In this document: positions 1 through 6,001 of the stretch, piece after piece | How positions within the stretch are numbered: the first letter of the stretch is position 1 | Layout of the letters: every line of letters begins with the position of its first letter | Assembly: GCA_037439705.1 (NCBI GenBank) | Contig: JBBIVP010000129.1 | Coordinates: 1-6,081, forward strand | Source: JBBIVP01 sp037439705 [NCBI: bacterium] | GTDB taxonomy: Bacteria; JBBIVP01 | Direction of reading: 5' to 3' | DNA length: 6,081 nucleotides | Notes under the pieces: model-generated | What the model was told of the DNA's origin: nothing | The model's database searches: none | The model's input: only the letters and a program-made list of their open reading frames with translations | Translations under genes and position numbers: made by a program

Positions 1-1224
1 GGAAAGTGTGGAGGCAGTAGGTGCGGAAACCGGAAAGATTACATAAGAAGTTTTCGCCCATTTTATTGACGCTTCAAGGCTTTCTTTTTTTGAGATTGAA
101 AGGAAAAATTGAGAAAGGGCAAAAATAAAAAGGAATAGGGATGTAATAAATAAAAATCCCTTATCCCCTTTGAATTTTCTAAACCCCCCTCCACTTATTG
201 TGGTTAAAAAAATCCCCATGTTCGCGGGTGAAGAAAAGGAAAAATCAAAAAGGGAATGAACGAAGAGTGGAATAAAGGAAAATCTCCATTTCTGGGAAGG
301 GTCAAAGGCTTTATAAAGATAAAAAGAAAAGAGAAAAAATCCGATGAGCCCTGAGGAAAAGAGAATTTCAAGCATGAAAGAATGAGGAAATCTGCTGTAA
401 ACACCACTTCTCTGGAAATACGGAAAAATTCTTTCAAAACTTCCATATCCATACCCTGCGACTGGATTTTTTGATATGGCATTGAGCGTGTCTTTCCAGA
501 GAGAAAGCCTTACGTTCAAAGAAGAATAAAAAGTTTCAATTGAGAACCTCTTCCAGAAAGGTGAAAAATAAAGAAAAAGAAAAATTATTCCGATGGTAAT
601 GAGGGAAAAAATTATATGGTGGGTTTTTATATTTTTTCTTAAACGAAAAAAGCCTGTAACTCCTGCTGAAAGGACAAAAAGAAAGAGGGCTGTTCTTGAA
701 CCTGTAAGTAGAATTCCTGTTAGAGAAAGAATAAATAACGGAAGGTCCGCCTTCGGATATATTGAAAGGATACTCGCAGGAAGTAGAAACCCCGCGGCTG
801 GATTTGGATGGAAGAATGTTCCCTGAGCCCTTCCCATGGTGGTAAGATATTGAGAACCACCTTTTATGTGATGAATGATTATGGAAATTGAAACAACAAA
901 AAATGCAGGTTTTAAAACATCGGTAGAGAGATTTTTTAACAAACTGCTTATAGAGATGAGCATTGCAAAATAAAAACACCATCTTAGTGTCAAGTCAGGA
1001 CTTTCAGACCAGAGTGCAGAAATCAAGAGAAAAATAAGGAATGGGAGACCCACTGGATTTATTGTGATTTCATTCCTTAAAAGAAAAAAAATGATGATAA
1101 ATAATAAGTCCGCTATACAAACCCATACCCCTTCCATTCCGCCAAATCCCAGAGGCAAGAGCACAAAAAGAAGGGAAATGAGGATTTCAGTATATCCAGG
1201 GCTTTGGAATAAACTTTTCTTCAT
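1..1224 (-). CDS. O-antigen ligase / Wzy_C-family polytopic membrane protein, C-terminus beyond the window
   Basis: Reading the minus strand from ATG 1224-1222 gives 408 codons without a stop to base 1, so the 3' end is missing. The protein starts [14 protein letters not shown] and is very hydrophobic, with about ten candidate membrane segments (roughly residues 12-30, 33-50, 58-72, 82-96, 107-118, 140-152, 160-186, 203-220, 286-302 and 355-376). Family-like landmarks are [10 protein letters not shown] (137-146), a TGSRTA turn with Arg177, and [11 protein letters not shown] (253-263). Next comes a loop with [16 protein letters not shown] (280-295), whose His281 sits where WaaL/Wzy-type proteins carry a key His, and then [13 protein letters not shown] (323-335). 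These enzymes transfer or polymerise undecaprenyl-linked glycans at the periplasmic face of the inner membrane; substrate cannot be told. The last segment (about 378-408) is soluble and may begin a TPR-like tail, an inference. The start overlaps the dGTPase gene by 38 nt, suggesting co-transcription. No good ribosome-binding site precedes it, so the start is likely but not certain. Confidence 0.82.
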
Positions 1225-2218
1225 ACAGATTCAGAGCATATCTGTCAGTCATTCCTGCTATAAAATCGCCCACCGAAAGATAGAGGGGCTCCCTCCATAA
1301 CTCCTTCCCTGCATCCTTCAGGAATTCATCCGGGTGTTTCATGTAATACTCATAAAGAAATTCAAGGATGTGATAACATTTTTTAAACTCCGCCCTTACC
1401 TTTTCCGATTCGTAAACCCTTTCAAACATAAAAGTTCTCAATGTCTCAATCGCATAGAGCATTCTCTCGCTCAACGCAATTTCACCCTTATCCATGCTGG
1501 TAAATATCACATCCTTCACCATTGTATCTATCCTTTTTGAATACCTTTCTCCTATTTCCTTTTTCACTATTTCAGGAAACTCATCTTCTCTTATAATTTT
1601 TGCCCTCAATGCATCATCAAGGTCGTGGTTTAAATAGGCTATTACATCGGATATTCTCACAATCATTCCTTCTAATGTTATTGGCTTCAAGTTTTCATCA
1701 GGTATTATTGGAGACTTTCCCTTTGAATGTTTTTTTATTCCATCCCTTACCTCAAAAGTTAAGTTCAAGCCCTGTCCATCTTTTTCAAGAATATCAACAA
1801 CCCTGATGCTCTGCTCTGCATGATGAAATCCGCCAGGAAGGATGTTATTTAAAACCTCCTCTCCAGCATGCCCAAATGGAGTATGACCAATGTCATGTCC
1901 TAAGGAGATTGCTTCAACGAGGTCTTCATTAAGCCTTAAAGAGCGTGCTATTGTCCTTGCAATCTGGGATACTTCAAGGGTATGGGTTAACCTCGTTCTA
2001 TAATGGTCGCCTTCAGGAAGAATGAGAACCTGAGTTTTGTGCTTCAGTCTTCTGAAAGCCTTTGAATGGACAATCCTGTCCCTGTCGTGTTGAAACGCAG
2101 GTCTTATATCGCATTCCTCCTCTGGTTTCAGCCTTCCCCTTGATGCTCTGCTTCTTTGAGCAAGTGGAGAAAGGGTATTTTCTTCAATCTCCTCAAGAAT
2201 TTCCCTTATTTTTCTCAT
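1187..2218 (-). CDS. dgt: HD-domain deoxyguanosinetriphosphate triphosphohydrolase-like protein (dGTPase)
   Basis: The 343-residue protein matches the dGTPase-like HD family, which hydrolyses dNTPs to deoxynucleosides and triphosphate in the cytoplasm and so helps set dNTP pools. Directly visible are the N-terminal signature SRGR...[17 protein letters not shown] (about 26-49), [10 protein letters not shown] (55-64), and [15 protein letters not shown] (69-83). The metal-binding HD set follows: His79, His108-Asp109 in [14 protein letters not shown], and Asp191 in [12 protein letters not shown]. The ending [17 protein letters not shown] is also typical, and the length is normal for the short bacterial form, so the gene looks complete. 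ATG 2218 is supported by AGGA seven bases upstream. It lies 99 nt after the propeller gene, and its end overlaps the Wzy-type gene. Family members differ in nucleotide preference (dGTP or several dNTPs), so the exact substrate is open. The link to glycan assembly is probably only positional. Confidence 0.94.
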
Positions 2219-2317: not shown

Positions 2318-3280
2318 TTAATCCCTGACAAAAGTAGTAGCAATAAGAAGTCCTGTGGGATTCATAAAAGGCACATCCTCTTTTGTAATTACTTTAATAG
2401 GTGAAACATCTCCAGAATCTGTTTTTTCATAAACGGTAACAGAATTACCCAGCATGTTTGCAACAAAAAGCTTATCTCCATAAATGCCTATTCCCACAGG
2501 TCCTTTGAGAAGAGTATCCTCACCTTTTATAACTCGTATTGGAAAAGTATTACCTGAAGCGGATAGAGGATAAACAACCACAGCATCTGCTCCGAAACTC
2601 GCCACAAACATTTCTTTCCTTTTCTCATCAATTGCTATACCTTCAGGAAATGAAAGAAGGGTGTCTGGACCCTCAATAACCCTTGTAGGGTAAGCATTGC
2701 CTGATGCATCAGTAGGGTAGAAGGTTATGGAGTGTCCCAACCAATTACTTACTGCTATTTCCCCCTCAAGTCCCTTGCAGGCGACCCCAGCTGGCCAGTA
2801 GAGACGGGTGAGAGACCCTTCTATCACTCTGAGAGGGGAAACATTCCCAGATGCATCCCTTGGAAAGACCGTTATCCTTCCAGCCCATATATTTATGATG
2901 AACATCTCGTTACTTCCATCAGGAATACATACGCCTTTTGAACCGTCAAACTTTGTCTTCTCTCCACCTAAAATCCTGCTTACCTCAAATCTTCCCTCGT
3001 CCGTCATCCTGAAGAAAAAAATCCTGTTGTTCCACCAGCTTGAAACCACGAGTTCTTTTCTCTCCACATCCTCAAACATGCCATAAGGTCCGGCTATTTT
3101 TCCATCCCCGGATAAATTACCTTCAGGAACAAAGTTTATGGAAGGGGTAAGTTTAAAAACAGAAACATAGTGCCCCATGAGATTGCTAACAAAGAGCATA
3201 CTTTCAAAAGATTCCTCCTTCTCTCCACACCGAGGTATAACGGCCATTATCACGCATAATGCCTTCCACATTTTCTTCAT
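2318..3280 (-). CDS. Exported six-bladed beta-propeller protein (NHL/SMP-30-like repeats), possible lipoprotein
   Basis: The 320-residue protein starts MKKMWKALCVIMAVIPRCGE, a short basic and hydrophobic export signal with a cysteine at 18. Pro-Arg before that Cys is a poor lipobox, so lipidation is doubtful. The rest is six repeats of 47-49 residues starting near 28, 76, 125, 174, 223 and 270. Each has a core like (E/K)(M/L)FV(A/S)N..G.S(I/V)TVYP, and the later ones add ASGN..P.RVI.G and a P.GI turn. Regular tandem units of this length predict a six-bladed propeller. No catalytic motif is visible, so a binding or scaffold role is more likely than an enzyme, by inference. ATG 3280 overlaps the cytochrome stop in ATGA and has GGAAG five bases upstream. 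It is the last gene of the dehydrogenase operon and could dock the complex, bind its substrate, or sit on the outer surface. The exact family was not recognised. Confidence 0.86.
   Translation of the reverse strand: MKKMWKALCVIMAVIPRCGEKEESFESMLFVSNLMGHYVSVFKLTPSINFVPEGNLSGDGKIAGPYGMFEDVERKELVVSSWWNNRIFFFRMTDEGRFEVSRILGGEKTKFDGSKGVCIPDGSNEMFIINIWAGRITVFPRDASGNVSPLRVIEGSLTRLYWPAGVACKGLEGEIAVSNWLGHSITFYPTDASGNAYPTRVIEGPDTLLSFPEGIAIDEKRKEMFVASFGADAVVVYPLSASGNTFPIRVIKGEDTLLKGPVGIGIYGDKLFVANMLGNSVTVYEKTDSGDVSPIKVITKEDVPFMNPTGLLIATTFVRD
2330..3199 (-). repeat. Six tandem ~49-codon repeats encoding propeller blades
   Basis: Six in-frame repeats of 47-49 codons start at about 3199, 3055, 2908, 2761, 2614 and 2473 (minus strand). 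Blades 3, 4 and 5 share the strongest protein identity: DASGN or SASGN, P, then RVI(E/K)G. Blades 1, 2 and 6 are more diverged. The match is mainly at protein level, with only short shared DNA words such as GATGCATC, so this is an old internal duplication rather than a recent one. Confidence 0.75.
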
Positions 3281-3972
3281 TGTGTCTTCCAGTAGTAAAG
3301 AGTTGGATTATGTCCGCTGAGGTGGCAGTTATAGCATCCTGCCCTATAGCGCTCATCTCCCTGAAAGTGGCAAAATCCACATGCCTCCTGTGGTTTCACG
3401 TCATTAAATTTGGCAGTTTCTTCTATAAGTTCTGTATGGGAATCGTGTATTCCCAAAATAGAAAAATTGTGACAGTCAGTGCACTGCGTTATTGCACCGT
3501 GTTTACCCTCCATAAGGTTGTGACATCCTCTGCATCCTGGATTGATTGCGCGAACTTTTATGCCAGGCCTAGGACCTACAAATCCTTCATGGAAAACCTT
3601 CTTATGTCCCCCTGAAATGATCAGCTCCCCACCTTCTGGGATTTCTCTCAACCAATCATGACATCCCTTACAGTCTCCCCCTTCATCTGGATAGAGTGTA
3701 ATTCCGTGTTCCTCATGGCACATTTCACACCTTTCCATATCCATCTGCGAGTGCTTTCCCCTTTTTACCCACTCTATCCCAAGCCATTTAAGAACAAAGC
3801 CCGTTCCTTTTACCTCAAAGGATGAGAGCACCTTCACTCCTTCTCCTTTCTTTTCCATCACGCTCTTCTGGGAGCCCATTTCTCCCTTTTCCACCAGCGA
3901 AGCAAATGGATGGCATCCCGTGCATTCATAAGTTATGGTATTCAAAAGAATGAGCATGAGAAAAAAGTTCAT
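3277..3972 (-). CDS. Periplasmic heptaheme c-type cytochrome
   Basis: The 231-residue product has seven CXXCH heme c sites at residues 17-21 (CTGCH), 82-86 (CEMCH), 101-105 (CKGCH), 147-151 (CRGCH), 164-168 (CTDCH), 198-202 (CGFCH) and 213-217 (CYNCH). Several spare histidines (74, 89, 123, 128, 158, 176, 179, 221) could be sixth ligands. The spacing resembles paired-CXXCH multiheme proteins, not the three-heme subunit of known GMC dehydrogenase complexes. Hydrophobic residues 2-14 act as export signal or anchor, and heme attachment requires export. Directly after the GMC gene, it probably accepts that enzyme's electrons. ATG 3972 was chosen because it forms ATGA with the GMC stop and has AGAAGGA eight bases upstream. 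An alternative GTG at 3996 lacks such a site but would add eight residues with three arginines, giving a more normal signal peptide. A 60-residue stretch between hemes 1 and 2 has no recognised domain. Confidence 0.92.
   Translation of the reverse strand: MNFFLMLILLNTITYECTGCHPFASLVEKGEMGSQKSVMEKKGEGVKVLSSFEVKGTGFVLKWLGIEWVKRGKHSQMDMERCEMCHEEHGITLYPDEGGDCKGCHDWLREIPEGGELIISGGHKKVFHEGFVGPRPGIKVRAINPGCRGCHNLMEGKHGAITQCTDCHNFSILGIHDSHTELIEETAKFNDVKPQEACGFCHFQGDERYRAGCYNCHLSGHNPTLYYWKTQ
3286..3290 (-). promoter_or_regulatory. Ribosome-binding site of the propeller gene
   Basis: GGAAG lies 5 nt upstream of ATG 3280, inside the end of the cytochrome gene. It supports this start and suggests that translation is re-initiated at the ATGA junction. 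Confidence 0.55.
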
Positions 3973-5417
3973 GCGGATATTCCTTCTGCAATCCACTCTG
4001 CTAATGCTGCGATGGTGAGAGCTGGATTTACGCCCACGCTGTATGAGAATATGCTCCCATCCACAATGTAAAAATTTTCGTATCCCCAGACTTCACCGAA
4101 TCTCTGCTTGCTCGGGTCCCCGCATACCACAGAACTGCTCTCATCGTCTCCCATTCTGCATGTGCCGAGTTGGTGAAGTGTTCCGTAGAATCCACCAAAT
4201 CCTCCTTCACCACTTATCAACACCTCTCCTCCATTTCCTTCCACAAGGTTATGAACAATAAGAGATGTTTCCTCGTAGTATTTACGAGTCTCCTCGCTCG
4301 GTTCATAACTCACTACTGGCTCACCCTTTTCATCTATTGCTACCTCACCATCTCCTGAAGTCATACCAACTGTTGCAATAAAGAACAAACGGTCTCTGAA
4401 TTCCTCCATTAACCGCTTGTGGTTCACTCCCCAATTGGACGGAGGAGAAGATGGATAAAAAAGGCTGAGAAGCGGAAAGATGGAAGGAGGAGCGGTGATA
4501 ACCTCTAACATAAATCCTTTTTCGCGCCAGAATGCAAACGAAACCACACCACCGTCTTCCCTCCCTTTGAAGGTTTCTGGTTTGAGGTCATCTTTGCCAA
4601 CGAGAACTGCAAAGACATTATCTCCGTTCAATGAAAGGTTCTTGCCCACCTGCTCCCAGTTGATGTGCGGAAGATTCTTTCTTGAACGAAGAAGGAGGGC
4701 TGGCGTTTCTATACTCCCACACGCCAGAACGAGTATCCGCGATTCTATGAATCTTTCTTCTCCATATTTATCCACATACCGCACAGTGTAGCTCTTGTTT
4801 GCTTCATAATATATCTCCCTTACATCACACTCTGCCCTTATCTCCGCACCCCTTTCTTCTGCAGAAGGAAGGTAGTTCAGAATCAAACTTTGTTTCCTCC
4901 CAAACCTGCATCCAAATATACACCATCCACATTCAAGGCAATTGTAAATAGCATAGGGTGCTCTTTCACAAGTTAACCCCTCAGATGCTAACCAGTTTGC
5001 AAGTACCCCTCCTTTCTTTGGAATCTTTTTCCATTGTAGTTGATTTACTTTTAAAATTTGAGAGACTCTGTTGTAATATGGGTCAAGTTTCTCCCTTGTT
5101 ACAATCGCCGGCCACTGCCTTTTTCCATCCACCTTTATCTCCAGAGCAGAAGTGGGCGCTTTAAGAGAAACACCTCCGTAGACAATAGAACCACCACCCA
5201 CGCACCTTGCTGTAAGAACCCCCAGCCTTCTTCCCGCGTAAATCTGATAGAGGTTGGTTAGGTACTTTATATCCAGAGTTTGACGGAAATCACTCGATCG
5301 GAAGTATTTTCCCCTTTCCAAAACCACTGTCTTCAATCCCTTCTCTGCAACTCGCAAAGCTGTGACACTTCCTCCAAAACCAGAACCCACTACGCAAGCA
5401 TCAAAGTATTCAGTCAT
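3969..5417 (-). CDS. GMC-family FAD-dependent oxidoreductase, catalytic subunit of a putative periplasmic dehydrogenase
   Basis: The 482-residue protein has the GMC layout. An N-terminal Rossmann fold carries GSGFGG (11-16) and Glu34 for FAD ribose. GGGSIVYGG (74-82) is the second FAD segment, and LACGSIETPALLL (231-243) matches the GMC signature-2 region. The C-terminus has LHQLGTCRMG with His415, then VDGSIF and GVNPALTIAALAEW with Asn464. His415/Asn464 match the catalytic His-Asn pair of cholesterol-oxidase-type members; substrate cannot be read from this. Four cysteines, C160-x2-C163-x2-C166-x3-C170, sit before the substrate domain. There is no signal peptide. Because the gene follows a Tat-signal small subunit by an ATGA overlap and precedes a multiheme cytochrome, it is probably co-exported by hitchhiking and passes electrons to the hemes rather than to oxygen. 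A cytoplasmic oxidase is the less likely alternative. Length is at the short end for GMC enzymes but all landmarks are present. Confidence 0.94.
   Translation of the reverse strand: MTEYFDACVVGSGFGGSVTALRVAEKGLKTVVLERGKYFRSSDFRQTLDIKYLTNLYQIYAGRRLGVLTARCVGGGSIVYGGVSLKAPTSALEIKVDGKRQWPAIVTREKLDPYYNRVSQILKVNQLQWKKIPKKGGVLANWLASEGLTCERAPYAIYNCLECGWCIFGCRFGRKQSLILNYLPSAEERGAEIRAECDVREIYYEANKSYTVRYVDKYGEERFIESRILVLACGSIETPALLLRSRKNLPHINWEQVGKNLSLNGDNVFAVLVGKDDLKPETFKGREDGGVVSFAFWREKGFMLEVITAPPSIFPLLSLFYPSSPPSNWGVNHKRLMEEFRDRLFFIATVGMTSGDGEVAIDEKGEPVVSYEPSEETRKYYEETSLIVHNLVEGNGGEVLISGEGGFGGFYGTLHQLGTCRMGDDESSSVVCGDPSKQRFGEVWGYENFYIVDGSIFSYSVGVNPALTIAALAEWIAEGISA
3981..3987 (-). promoter_or_regulatory. 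Ribosome-binding site that favours the ATG 3972 start of the cytochrome
   Basis: AGAAGGA lies within the last codons of the GMC gene, 8 nt before ATG 3972. The competing GTG at 3996 has no comparable motif upstream, so this site decides the start call. Confidence 0.6.
4908..4940 (-). other. Codons for the four-cysteine motif of the GMC subunit
   Basis: These eleven codons encode CLECGWCIFGC, spacing C-x2-C-x2-C-x3-C. A subset of GMC enzymes carries a similar cysteine block, and the catalytic subunit of FAD-dependent glucose dehydrogenase has a 3Fe-4S cluster bound by cysteines. Whether this one binds iron-sulfur is inference. Confidence 0.6.
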
Positions 5418-5965
5418 GGAAGATTCCCATCCAATGTCATTTCCTCTGCGAACTTTTTTCCATAAGAAGTATCACTCACGCCCGCATTTGGCACAAACCC
5501 CATAAGTTTCAGCCCTGCAGGATTATACCATCCTGAATAAAATGCCACGAGAGCAAAGGCTATCGCTGGATAGTAAAAGTAATTCTCCCTTTCTATAAGA
5601 AGATGCGTTCTCTCTTCAAAATTGAGCTCTATGAATTTTCTATCATAAGCTTTTATGGAAAAGGCATCAAGGTCTTTCGCAAGCAGCTCTAAAGGTGAAG
5701 AGAACCATTGGAAAAATGAAGGGTCATAAAACACATTGATGACACATCCTTCCTCCGCTCCCGGTTTCCGTTCAGGATCGTTCATCTCACCAGGAATAAT
5801 AGTGTCAAGAAATGCCTCTATAGTCTTTTGGGTATGGGTTTTGGGTTGAAGACATCTTGAAATTTCTGTTTCTTTCCATTTTTTACATCCTAAGTGAAAC
5901 AGCACGCTGAAAAATAAGGACGAAAAGGAAAAAATAAAATTTCTTCTTGTAACTCCGTCTCCCAT
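5414..5965 (-). CDS. Gluconate 2-dehydrogenase subunit 3-like small subunit with twin-arginine signal
   Basis: The 183-residue form starting MGDGVTRRNFIFSF has a twin-arginine signal (Arg7-Arg8 in TRRNFIF), a hydrophobic stretch to about residue 25 and Cys27 in HLGC. That is a partial lipobox, so it may be a Tat-exported lipoprotein. Residues about 47-155 resemble the subunit 3 (gamma) domain of gluconate, glucose and fructose dehydrogenases: FLDTIIPGE, then PGAEEG, an acidic helix with LLAKDLDAF, and a late AFYSGWYNPAGLKLMGF. In those complexes the gamma subunit assists folding and Tat export of the signal-less GMC subunit. Here it directly precedes the GMC gene with an ATGA overlap, exactly the expected order. 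Start choice: a TTG at 6001 keeps the frame open but coincides with a perfect -35 box, and ATG 5974 lies in the -10 region. ATG 5965 is therefore preferred, possibly leaderless. No Shine-Dalgarno motif precedes any of these. Confidence 0.85.
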   Translation of the reverse strand: MGDGVTRRNFIFSFSSLFFSVLFHLGCKKWKETEISRCLQPKTHTQKTIEAFLDTIIPGEMNDPERKPGAEEGCVINVFYDPSFFQWFSSPLELLAKDLDAFSIKAYDRKFIELNFEERTHLLIERENYFYYPAIAFALVAFYSGWYNPAGLKLMGFVPNAGVSDTSYGKKFAEEMTLDGNLP

Positions 5966-5972
5966 TTTTATC

Positions 5973-6001
5973 ATATTATCTTGAAAAAATACCGATGTCA
6001 A
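5973..6001 (-). promoter_or_regulatory. Candidate sigma-70 promoter of the dehydrogenase operon
   Basis: The minus strand has TTGACA (5996-6001), a perfect -35 consensus. It is followed at 17 nt by TAATAT (5973-5978, four of six) or at 15 nt by GATAAT (5975-5980, five of six). Transcription would start around 5966-5968, almost at ATG 5965, so the transcript would be leaderless or nearly so. GATAATAT recurs upstream at 6031-6038 without a matching -35 box. Confidence 0.55.

What the first reader, a model, noticed from the sequence alone, without database searches (positions are those of the whole stretch)
2318..6001. Possible new GMC dehydrogenase complex: Tat small subunit, Cys-motif GMC, heptaheme cytochrome, propeller
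Seen: four genes chained by 4-nt overlaps. Known: FAD-dependent glucose, gluconate and fructose dehydrogenases use a gamma subunit, a GMC catalytic subunit and a roughly three-heme cytochrome. Here the cytochrome is replaced by an unrelated-looking seven-CXXCH protein and an exported six-bladed propeller is added. Inference: a periplasmic substrate oxidation module wired to a longer heme chain, possibly for anaerobic or extracellular electron transfer, with an unknown substrate.
Basis: partly seen in the sequence, partly recalled or inferred. Interest (0 to 1): 0.72.

Follow-up and report, generated by a model that had tools for sequence, protein, structure and literature searches.

The report
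GMC dehydrogenase wired to seven-heme cytochrome
A bacterial gene cluster appears to encode an exported alcohol- or sugar-oxidising flavin enzyme that passes its electrons to a dedicated seven-heme protein instead of the usual three-heme one, and the same trio of genes recurs in distantly related bacteria, so it looks like an unrecorded version of a known kind of enzyme complex.

Summary
Four minus-strand genes, each overlapping the next by 4 nt, encode a Tat small subunit, a 482-aa GMC flavoprotein without a signal peptide, a seven-CXXCH cytochrome and an NHL-type propeller. Eight full-length cytochromes share seven heme sites and exactly seven further invariant histidines, predicting seven bis-His hemes. 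GMC cysteines C160, C166 and C170 have the 3Fe-4S ligand spacing of Burkholderia glucose dehydrogenase. Two small-subunit cysteines occur in 9 of 9 members with the cytochrome and together in 0 of 8 relatives without it nearby. Best reading: a FAD-to-Fe-S-to-heme dehydrogenase complex working like the gluconate/glucose/fructose dehydrogenases, its triheme subunit replaced by a c7/c3-type heptaheme protein. The window's propeller was not found in the relatives. The substrate is unknown. Anaerobic or extracellular use is unproven; 6 of 8 host genomes carry a heme-copper oxidase gene. A new variant of a known kind.

The parts
5414..5965 (-). Small subunit, 183 aa; Tat motif TRRNFIF; related to DUF5987 and, weakly, to Gluconate_2-dh3; C38 and C74 shared with members that have the cytochrome
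   Evidence: DUF5987 E 3e-4 (below cut-off in the window, above it in G028)
3969..5417 (-). GMC flavoprotein, 482 aa, no signal peptide (FAD motif GSGFGG at residues 11-16); Cys motif C160-C163-C166-C170; catalytic-pair positions H415 and N464
   Evidence: 4-nt overlap with the small subunit gene
3277..3972 (-). Heptaheme cytochrome c, c7/c3-type, 231 aa; seven CXXCH plus seven other invariant His (H74, H89, H123, H158, H176, H179, H221)
   Evidence: 4-nt overlap with the GMC gene
2318..3280 (-). NHL/SMP-30-like beta-propeller, 320 aa, probably six blades, short N-terminal hydrophobic stretch; no homologue found beside the relatives' trios
   Evidence: no tblastn hit at E<0.1 in any held locus; 4-nt overlap with the cytochrome gene

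Best explanation
An exported FAD-dependent dehydrogenase complex. The folded GMC subunit, which has no signal peptide, is carried across the membrane by the Tat small subunit (inferred from the Burkholderia glucose dehydrogenase hitchhiker). Outside the cytoplasm it oxidises a hydroxyl group of an unknown alcohol, sugar or sterol with its His/Asn pair. Electrons go from FAD to an Fe-S cluster held by C160, C166 and C170 (perhaps also C163) and then to the nearest heme of the seven-heme cytochrome, which collects them and hands them to a downstream acceptor not encoded in the window. Shown here: the recurring gene trio, conserved cysteines, conserved heme and probable axial-ligand positions, and covariation of two small-subunit cysteines with the cytochrome. 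Inferred: translocation as a pair, presence and type of the cluster, electron path, substrate, acceptor.
For: Strong matches to the cytochrome profile in 1 of 297, 7 of 282 and 0 of 257 genomes (six of the eight were in the profile, G884 and G894 are new). No ORF with three or more CXXCH within 3 kb of the GMC in 21 of 21 non-trio GMC loci (seven have flanks shorter than 3 kb on a side; two related loci have one at 4.2-4.4 kb). The window cytochrome scores 121.7 bits (E 6e-38) against a profile made without it; with heme motifs hidden the seven relatives match at E 1e-8 down to 0.1. Seven heme sites plus exactly seven other invariant His in 8 of 8 full-length sequences; one (G894) has only 14 His in all. 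GMC C160/C166/C170 share the C-x5-C-x3-C spacing of BcGDH Cys212/218/222; the alignment itself covers C166 and C170, the ligands are from PMC6719666 (passages). H415 and N464 invariant in 11 of 11 aligned GMCs. Small-subunit C38 and C74 in 9 of 9 with cytochrome, both in 0 of 8 without it nearby. Twin-arginine motif in 9 of 9 trio small subunits (by eye).
Against: No biochemistry; no complex structure could be predicted. In the GMC tree the window does not group firmly with the other trio members (weak forks, 57/23), and two cytochrome-less GMCs (G568, G687) sit beside them, so one origin with a loss, or two gains, are both open. The four-Cys motif also occurs in GMC enzymes without a neighbouring cytochrome. 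With heme motifs hidden, the match to G028 and G569 nearly vanishes (E 0.002 and 0.1). The window cytochrome lacks the lipobox-like cysteine seen in its relatives (by eye). The alignment to BcGDH is weak (E 4e-4 for the fragment; 2e-6 for the whole GMC).
Confidence: 0.7

Rival explanations
1. The GMC and small subunit form an oxidase or a dehydrogenase using another acceptor, and the cytochrome is a co-transcribed but functionally separate electron carrier.
For: GMC-small pairs exist without the cytochrome: G568 and G687, G387, four annotated Streptomyces plasmid loci with DUF5987 + GMC. Closest curated model is cholesterol oxidase, E 1e-38 but far below its cut-off.
Against: Wherever context could be read, the cytochrome was found only beside this GMC, with cysteines in the small subunit that follow its presence. 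Streptomyces homologues lack the Cys aligned with C166.
Confidence: 0.17
2. The module serves extracellular or anaerobic respiration, the heptaheme protein feeding an outer-membrane conduit and the propeller docking the complex at the surface.
For: Multiheme c7/c3-type cytochrome; lipoprotein-like N-termini in relatives (by eye); no COX1 match in G028 and G589; an eight-CXXCH cytochrome is encoded beside the trio in G569.
Against: 6 of 8 host genomes have COX1 above cut-off; the G569 gene is the only other multiheme ORF in the fetched trio loci; the window's propeller was not found in relatives. Porin-cytochrome conduits were not searched for in the host genomes.
Confidence: 0.1
3. The propeller is a lactonase that hydrolyses the lactone made by the GMC enzyme, so the operon is a sugar-oxidising pathway.
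For: Pfam Arylesterase E 1.5e-5 (above cut-off), SGL and Lactonase weak hits; operon position; a YNCE/Lactonase-type propeller also lies beside a distant, cytochrome-less GMC in G073.
Against: No PNG sequence, which I recall as holding a metal-ligand Asn in SMP-30 and paraoxonase, anywhere in it (read by eye); the hits cover only 29 to 80 residues; not found with the other trios.
Confidence: 0.05

Closest known systems
FAD-dependent dehydrogenase complexes (Burkholderia cepacia FAD glucose dehydrogenase, fructose dehydrogenase, 2-ketogluconate dehydrogenase)
   Same: GMC catalytic subunit with His/Asn pair; Fe-S cysteines at C-x5-C-x3-C spacing; Tat small subunit as hitchhiker; partner c-type cytochrome
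   Different: Cytochrome is a seven-heme c7/c3-type protein with predicted bis-His ligation, not a three-heme subunit; the fourth Cys of the motif is three residues after the first (C163), not next to it (Cys213); small subunit nearer DUF5987; GMC nearer cholesterol oxidase than glucose dehydrogenase by phmmer
DUF5987-GMC gene pairs of Streptomyces
   Same: Homologous GMC (34-35% identity in alignment) and small subunit (27-33%), adjacent genes with 4-nt overlap in four of four annotated loci opened
   Different: No c-type cytochrome beside them; Cys motif lacks the Cys aligned with C166 (e.g. CTNCNWMMAGC); three of four small subunits have no signal peptide by eye
Bacterial cholesterol oxidase (GMC)
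   Same: Best PDB sequence match of the GMC, E 8e-19
   Different: C170 aligns with a non-Cys and residues 160-166 are not aligned; no cytochrome or small subunit in that family (recalled)
Cytochrome c7/c3 multiheme proteins (e.g. Hmc, 1h29)
   Same: Pfam Cytochrome_C7 above cut-off in the window; weak phmmer hit to Hmc (E 0.004)
   Different: Seven hemes in a fixed arrangement, linked only to this GMC module where context could be read

Membership tests
FAD-dependent dehydrogenase complex (gamma-alpha-beta) | GMC catalytic subunit with His/Asn catalytic pair | tested here: met
   Pfam GMC_oxred_N and _C; H415 and N464 invariant in 11 of 11
FAD-dependent dehydrogenase complex (gamma-alpha-beta) | 3Fe-4S cysteines C-x5-C-x3-C on the catalytic subunit | tested here: met
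   Sequence only: C166 and C170 align to Cys218/222, C160 by spacing to Cys212; ligands from passages of PMC6719666. The cluster itself was not tested
FAD-dependent dehydrogenase complex (gamma-alpha-beta) | Tat hitchhiker small subunit of the Gluconate_2-dh3 family | tested here: inconclusive
   Tat motif present; PF13618 E 0.1 in the window and 5e-4 in G618, both below cut-off; single-sequence fold failed, pLDDT 37
FAD-dependent dehydrogenase complex (gamma-alpha-beta) | Electron-transfer subunit with three heme c | tested here: not met
   Seven hemes, Cytochrome_C7/c3 models, no mono-heme Cytochrom_C model at E<1
FAD-dependent dehydrogenase complex (gamma-alpha-beta) | Substrate oxidation coupled to heme reduction | not testable with these tools
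   needs purified protein
Cholesterol oxidase | NCBIfam equivalog CholsOxChoxAB cut-off 850 bits | tested here: not met
   133.2 bits
DUF5987 (PF19449) | Gathering score 27 bits | tested here: inconclusive
   20.9 bits in the window, 29.1 in G028
Cytochrome c7 (PF14522) | Gathering score 24.8 bits | tested here: met
   29.6 bits in the window, 45.2 in G894, 24.7 in G618 just under

The most novel reading that the evidence does not exclude
A separate class of GMC dehydrogenase complexes in which a mostly lipid-anchored, all-bis-His heptaheme protein with a dedicated docking site (small-subunit C38/C74 and possibly a fourth cluster cysteine, giving a 4Fe-4S centre) stores or relays many electrons per complex, in the window organism with an added surface propeller, feeding acceptors outside the usual quinone or cytochrome pool, including extracellular ones.
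Probability: 0.15. Interest if true: 0.75.

Novelty: new variant of a known kind. Interest (0 to 1): 0.5.

Why it matters
The FAD-dependent dehydrogenase complexes are of interest for glucose sensors because their cytochrome subunit passes electrons directly to electrodes (PMC9727119, passages). A family in which that subunit is replaced by a seven-heme protein suggests that the GMC plus small-subunit core accepts different electron acceptors, offers a natural test of what makes such an enzyme electrode-active, and names an oxidation pathway in Myxococcota-like and Desulfobacterota-like genomes whose substrate can now be looked for.

Tried and rejected
Cys motif as the novelty: rejected, since CxxCxxCxxxC occurs in 11 of 19 non-trio GMCs of the tree set. 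Propeller as a conserved fourth subunit: no tblastn hit at E<0.1 in any held locus; a blastp of locus ORFs gave one weak match (24% over 71 aa, E 0.009) to an FG-GAP repeat protein near a cytochrome-less GMC in G387, and an unrelated YNCE-type propeller lies beside a distant GMC in G073, so propellers near GMC genes are not unique but no trio besides the window's was seen with one. Conserved link to O-antigen ligase: a Wzy_C protein precedes the GMC in G028 and lies two genes after the propeller in the window, but the two do not match each other (E 0.15); in the Myxococcales-phylum loci only a blastp against the window's protein was made, which would miss distant ones; treated as coincidence. 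Lactonase role of the propeller: see rivals. Host of the window: dGTPase tree puts it beside a Syntrophaceae MAG with 80/89 support and 61% identity; phylum not settled. Null searches: genome contigs and viral contigs with the GMC, viral contigs with alignment A1, plasmids with the cytochrome, GMC at E<1e-45 in 151 genomes of the phylum of G010, cytochrome in 257 genomes of the phylum of G005 (neither of the last two held a known positive). One search showed the same handles as and added nothing. Single-sequence fold of the small subunit failed. Literature: no paper describing this module among those listed (listings and abstract starts only; 15 of 23 shown, 15 of 54); passages were read only in PMC6719666 and PMC9727119, found among others. 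Most subscription journals are not held. Promoter and terminator scans were at chance level.

Full report
What is in the window. Six minus-strand genes: small subunit (5965-5414), GMC (5417-3969), seven-CXXCH cytochrome (3972-3277), propeller (3280-2318), then dGTPase (2218-1187) and an O-antigen ligase that runs off the window's low-coordinate end. The first four are joined by 4-nt overlaps. The GMC starts almost directly with its FAD-binding motif and has no signal peptide; the small subunit has TRRNFIF.

What each part is. The GMC matches Pfam GMC_oxred_N (9e-24) and _C (1e-12); its closest solved relatives by sequence are cholesterol oxidases (8e-19), with pyranose oxidase and Burkholderia glucose dehydrogenase at about 1e-6. 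The small subunit matches DUF5987 (3e-4) and barely Gluconate_2-dh3 (0.1); two relatives scanned match one or both better. The cytochrome matches Cytochrome_C7 and Cytochrom_c3_2 above cut-off. The propeller matches Arylesterase, SGL and Lactonase over 29 to 80 residues; its model resembles NHL propellers, but at mean pLDDT 54.

The pair is widespread. tblastn of the GMC against plasmids found 167 records, 35 of them Streptomyces. In four of four annotated Streptomyces loci that I opened, a DUF5987 gene directly precedes the GMC, overlapping it by 4 nt. Two further loci were opened: one carries no annotation, the other (Pseudoalteromonas) shows no such pair.

The trio. Its GMC is followed by a Tat small subunit (40% identity) and a cytochrome with the same seven heme sites. 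Of 247 genomes from the phylum of an Aminicenantes MAG, 1 (G387) had a GMC at E<1e-45, with a small subunit beside one of its two copies and no cytochrome. Of 140 genomes from the phylum of a Myxococcales MAG, 7 had one; 5 of these 7 show the order GMC-small-cytochrome, 2 (G568, G687) only GMC-small. A profile of seven cytochromes (window, G028 and those five, so six genomes match by construction) then found strong matches in 1 of 297, 7 of 282 (G884 and G894 new; an eighth, G672, is a weak partial match left out) and 0 of 257 genomes. In all 8 genomes one copy lies directly behind small subunit and GMC. Second matches in G894 and G884 begin at contig ends, so their context is unknown.

Controls. 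In 21 loci of GMC enzymes without this cytochrome, 0 have an ORF with three or more CXXCH within 3 kb of the GMC; 2 (L117, L119, related) have a ten-CXXCH ORF at 4.2-4.4 kb. Seven of the 21 have less than 3 kb on at least one side (L114, L115, L116, L118, L122, L135, L142; L114 and L116 on both), so the negative is incomplete for those. The window cytochrome scores 121.7 bits against a profile built without it. With every heme motif hidden, the seven relatives match it at E 1e-8, 4e-8, 4e-7, 5e-4, 8e-4, 0.002 and 0.1, so part but not all of the similarity rests on the heme motifs.

Heme ligands. In the 8 full-length cytochromes the invariant His and Cys columns are exactly the seven heme motifs plus seven other His: H74, H89, H123, H158, H176, H179, H221 in window numbering. 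G894 has only these 14 His. No Met column is invariant. This predicts bis-His ligation for all seven, unlike the His/Met third heme proposed for BcGDH (PMC9727119, passages). Heme site 3 is CX3CH in six of the seven full-length relatives and CX2CH in the window and G894.

Fe-S site. BcGDH holds a 3Fe-4S cluster by Cys212, Cys218 and Cys222, about 12-13 angstrom from FAD (PMC6719666, passages) and 7-8 angstrom from the third heme of its partner (PMC9727119). The phmmer alignment pairs window C166 and C170 with Cys218 and Cys222; C160 has the spacing of Cys212. C160 and C170 are invariant in 11 of 11 aligned GMCs, C163 and C166 in 10 of 11 each. The fourth Cys leaves 3Fe-4S and 4Fe-4S both possible. 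The motif is not confined to trio members.

Small-subunit cysteines. C38 and C74 are present in 9 of 9 trio members and both together in 0 of 8 others examined (one of the 8, G387, has the first by alignment). Relatedness among the Myxococcales-phylum members reduces the independent weight, but window and G028 share them too. They may form a disulfide that shapes the cytochrome docking face; this is inference.

Evolution. In a 28-row GMC tree eight trio members form a supported clade (99/96) next to cytochrome-less G568 and G687 (100/99), while the window's place is unresolved (57/23). One origin with a loss and rearrangement, or two gains, are both open. The window order small-GMC-cytochrome differs from the GMC-small-cytochrome order of all eight relatives.

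Where electrons go. Relatives' cytochromes begin with a hydrophobic stretch and a lipobox-like cysteine (read by eye); the window's does not clearly. COX1 above cut-off in 6 of 8 host genomes (genomes may be incomplete) argues against a purely anaerobic role. The window host is unknown. Outer-membrane conduits were not searched for.

Verdict. Works like the FAD-dependent dehydrogenase complexes, but is not filed as one of them because the three-heme electron-transfer subunit, a defining part, was tested and is absent. It is a recurring variant with a heptaheme subunit. Not seen in print among the papers listed from the held library.

Noticed in passing
window 1187-2218 (-) and 1-1224 (-): dGTPase (deoxyguanosinetriphosphate triphosphohydrolase equivalog, above cut-off) followed by a Wzy_C O-antigen ligase, same strand as the operon.
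   Followed up: partly
window 5973-6001 (-): TTGACA-17-TAATAT just upstream of the ATG at 5965, covering the TTG that the ORF list took as start; the scan as a whole is at chance level.
   Followed up: no
L137:10086-11576 (+): An eight-CXXCH cytochrome (Multi-haem_cyto, Cytochrome_C554 matches) is encoded divergently 235 nt from the GMC of the trio in G569.
   Followed up: partly
L138:10734-12728 (+): A second, distant GMC enzyme is encoded beside the trio in G579.
   Followed up: no
L110:10934-12556 (-): A flavoprotein with a glycerophosphate-oxidase C-terminal domain and a BFD-like 2Fe-2S domain follows the trio in G028.
   Followed up: partly
L002, L003, L004 (Streptomyces plasmids): DUF5987 partners of GMC enzymes without any visible signal peptide, with 4-nt-overlapping GMC genes; the small subunit may there do something other than export.
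   Followed up: no
L120:8852-9997 (-): A YNCE/Lactonase-type propeller is encoded on the same strand directly upstream of a distant GMC in G073, another propeller-GMC neighbourhood without a multiheme cytochrome.
   Followed up: partly
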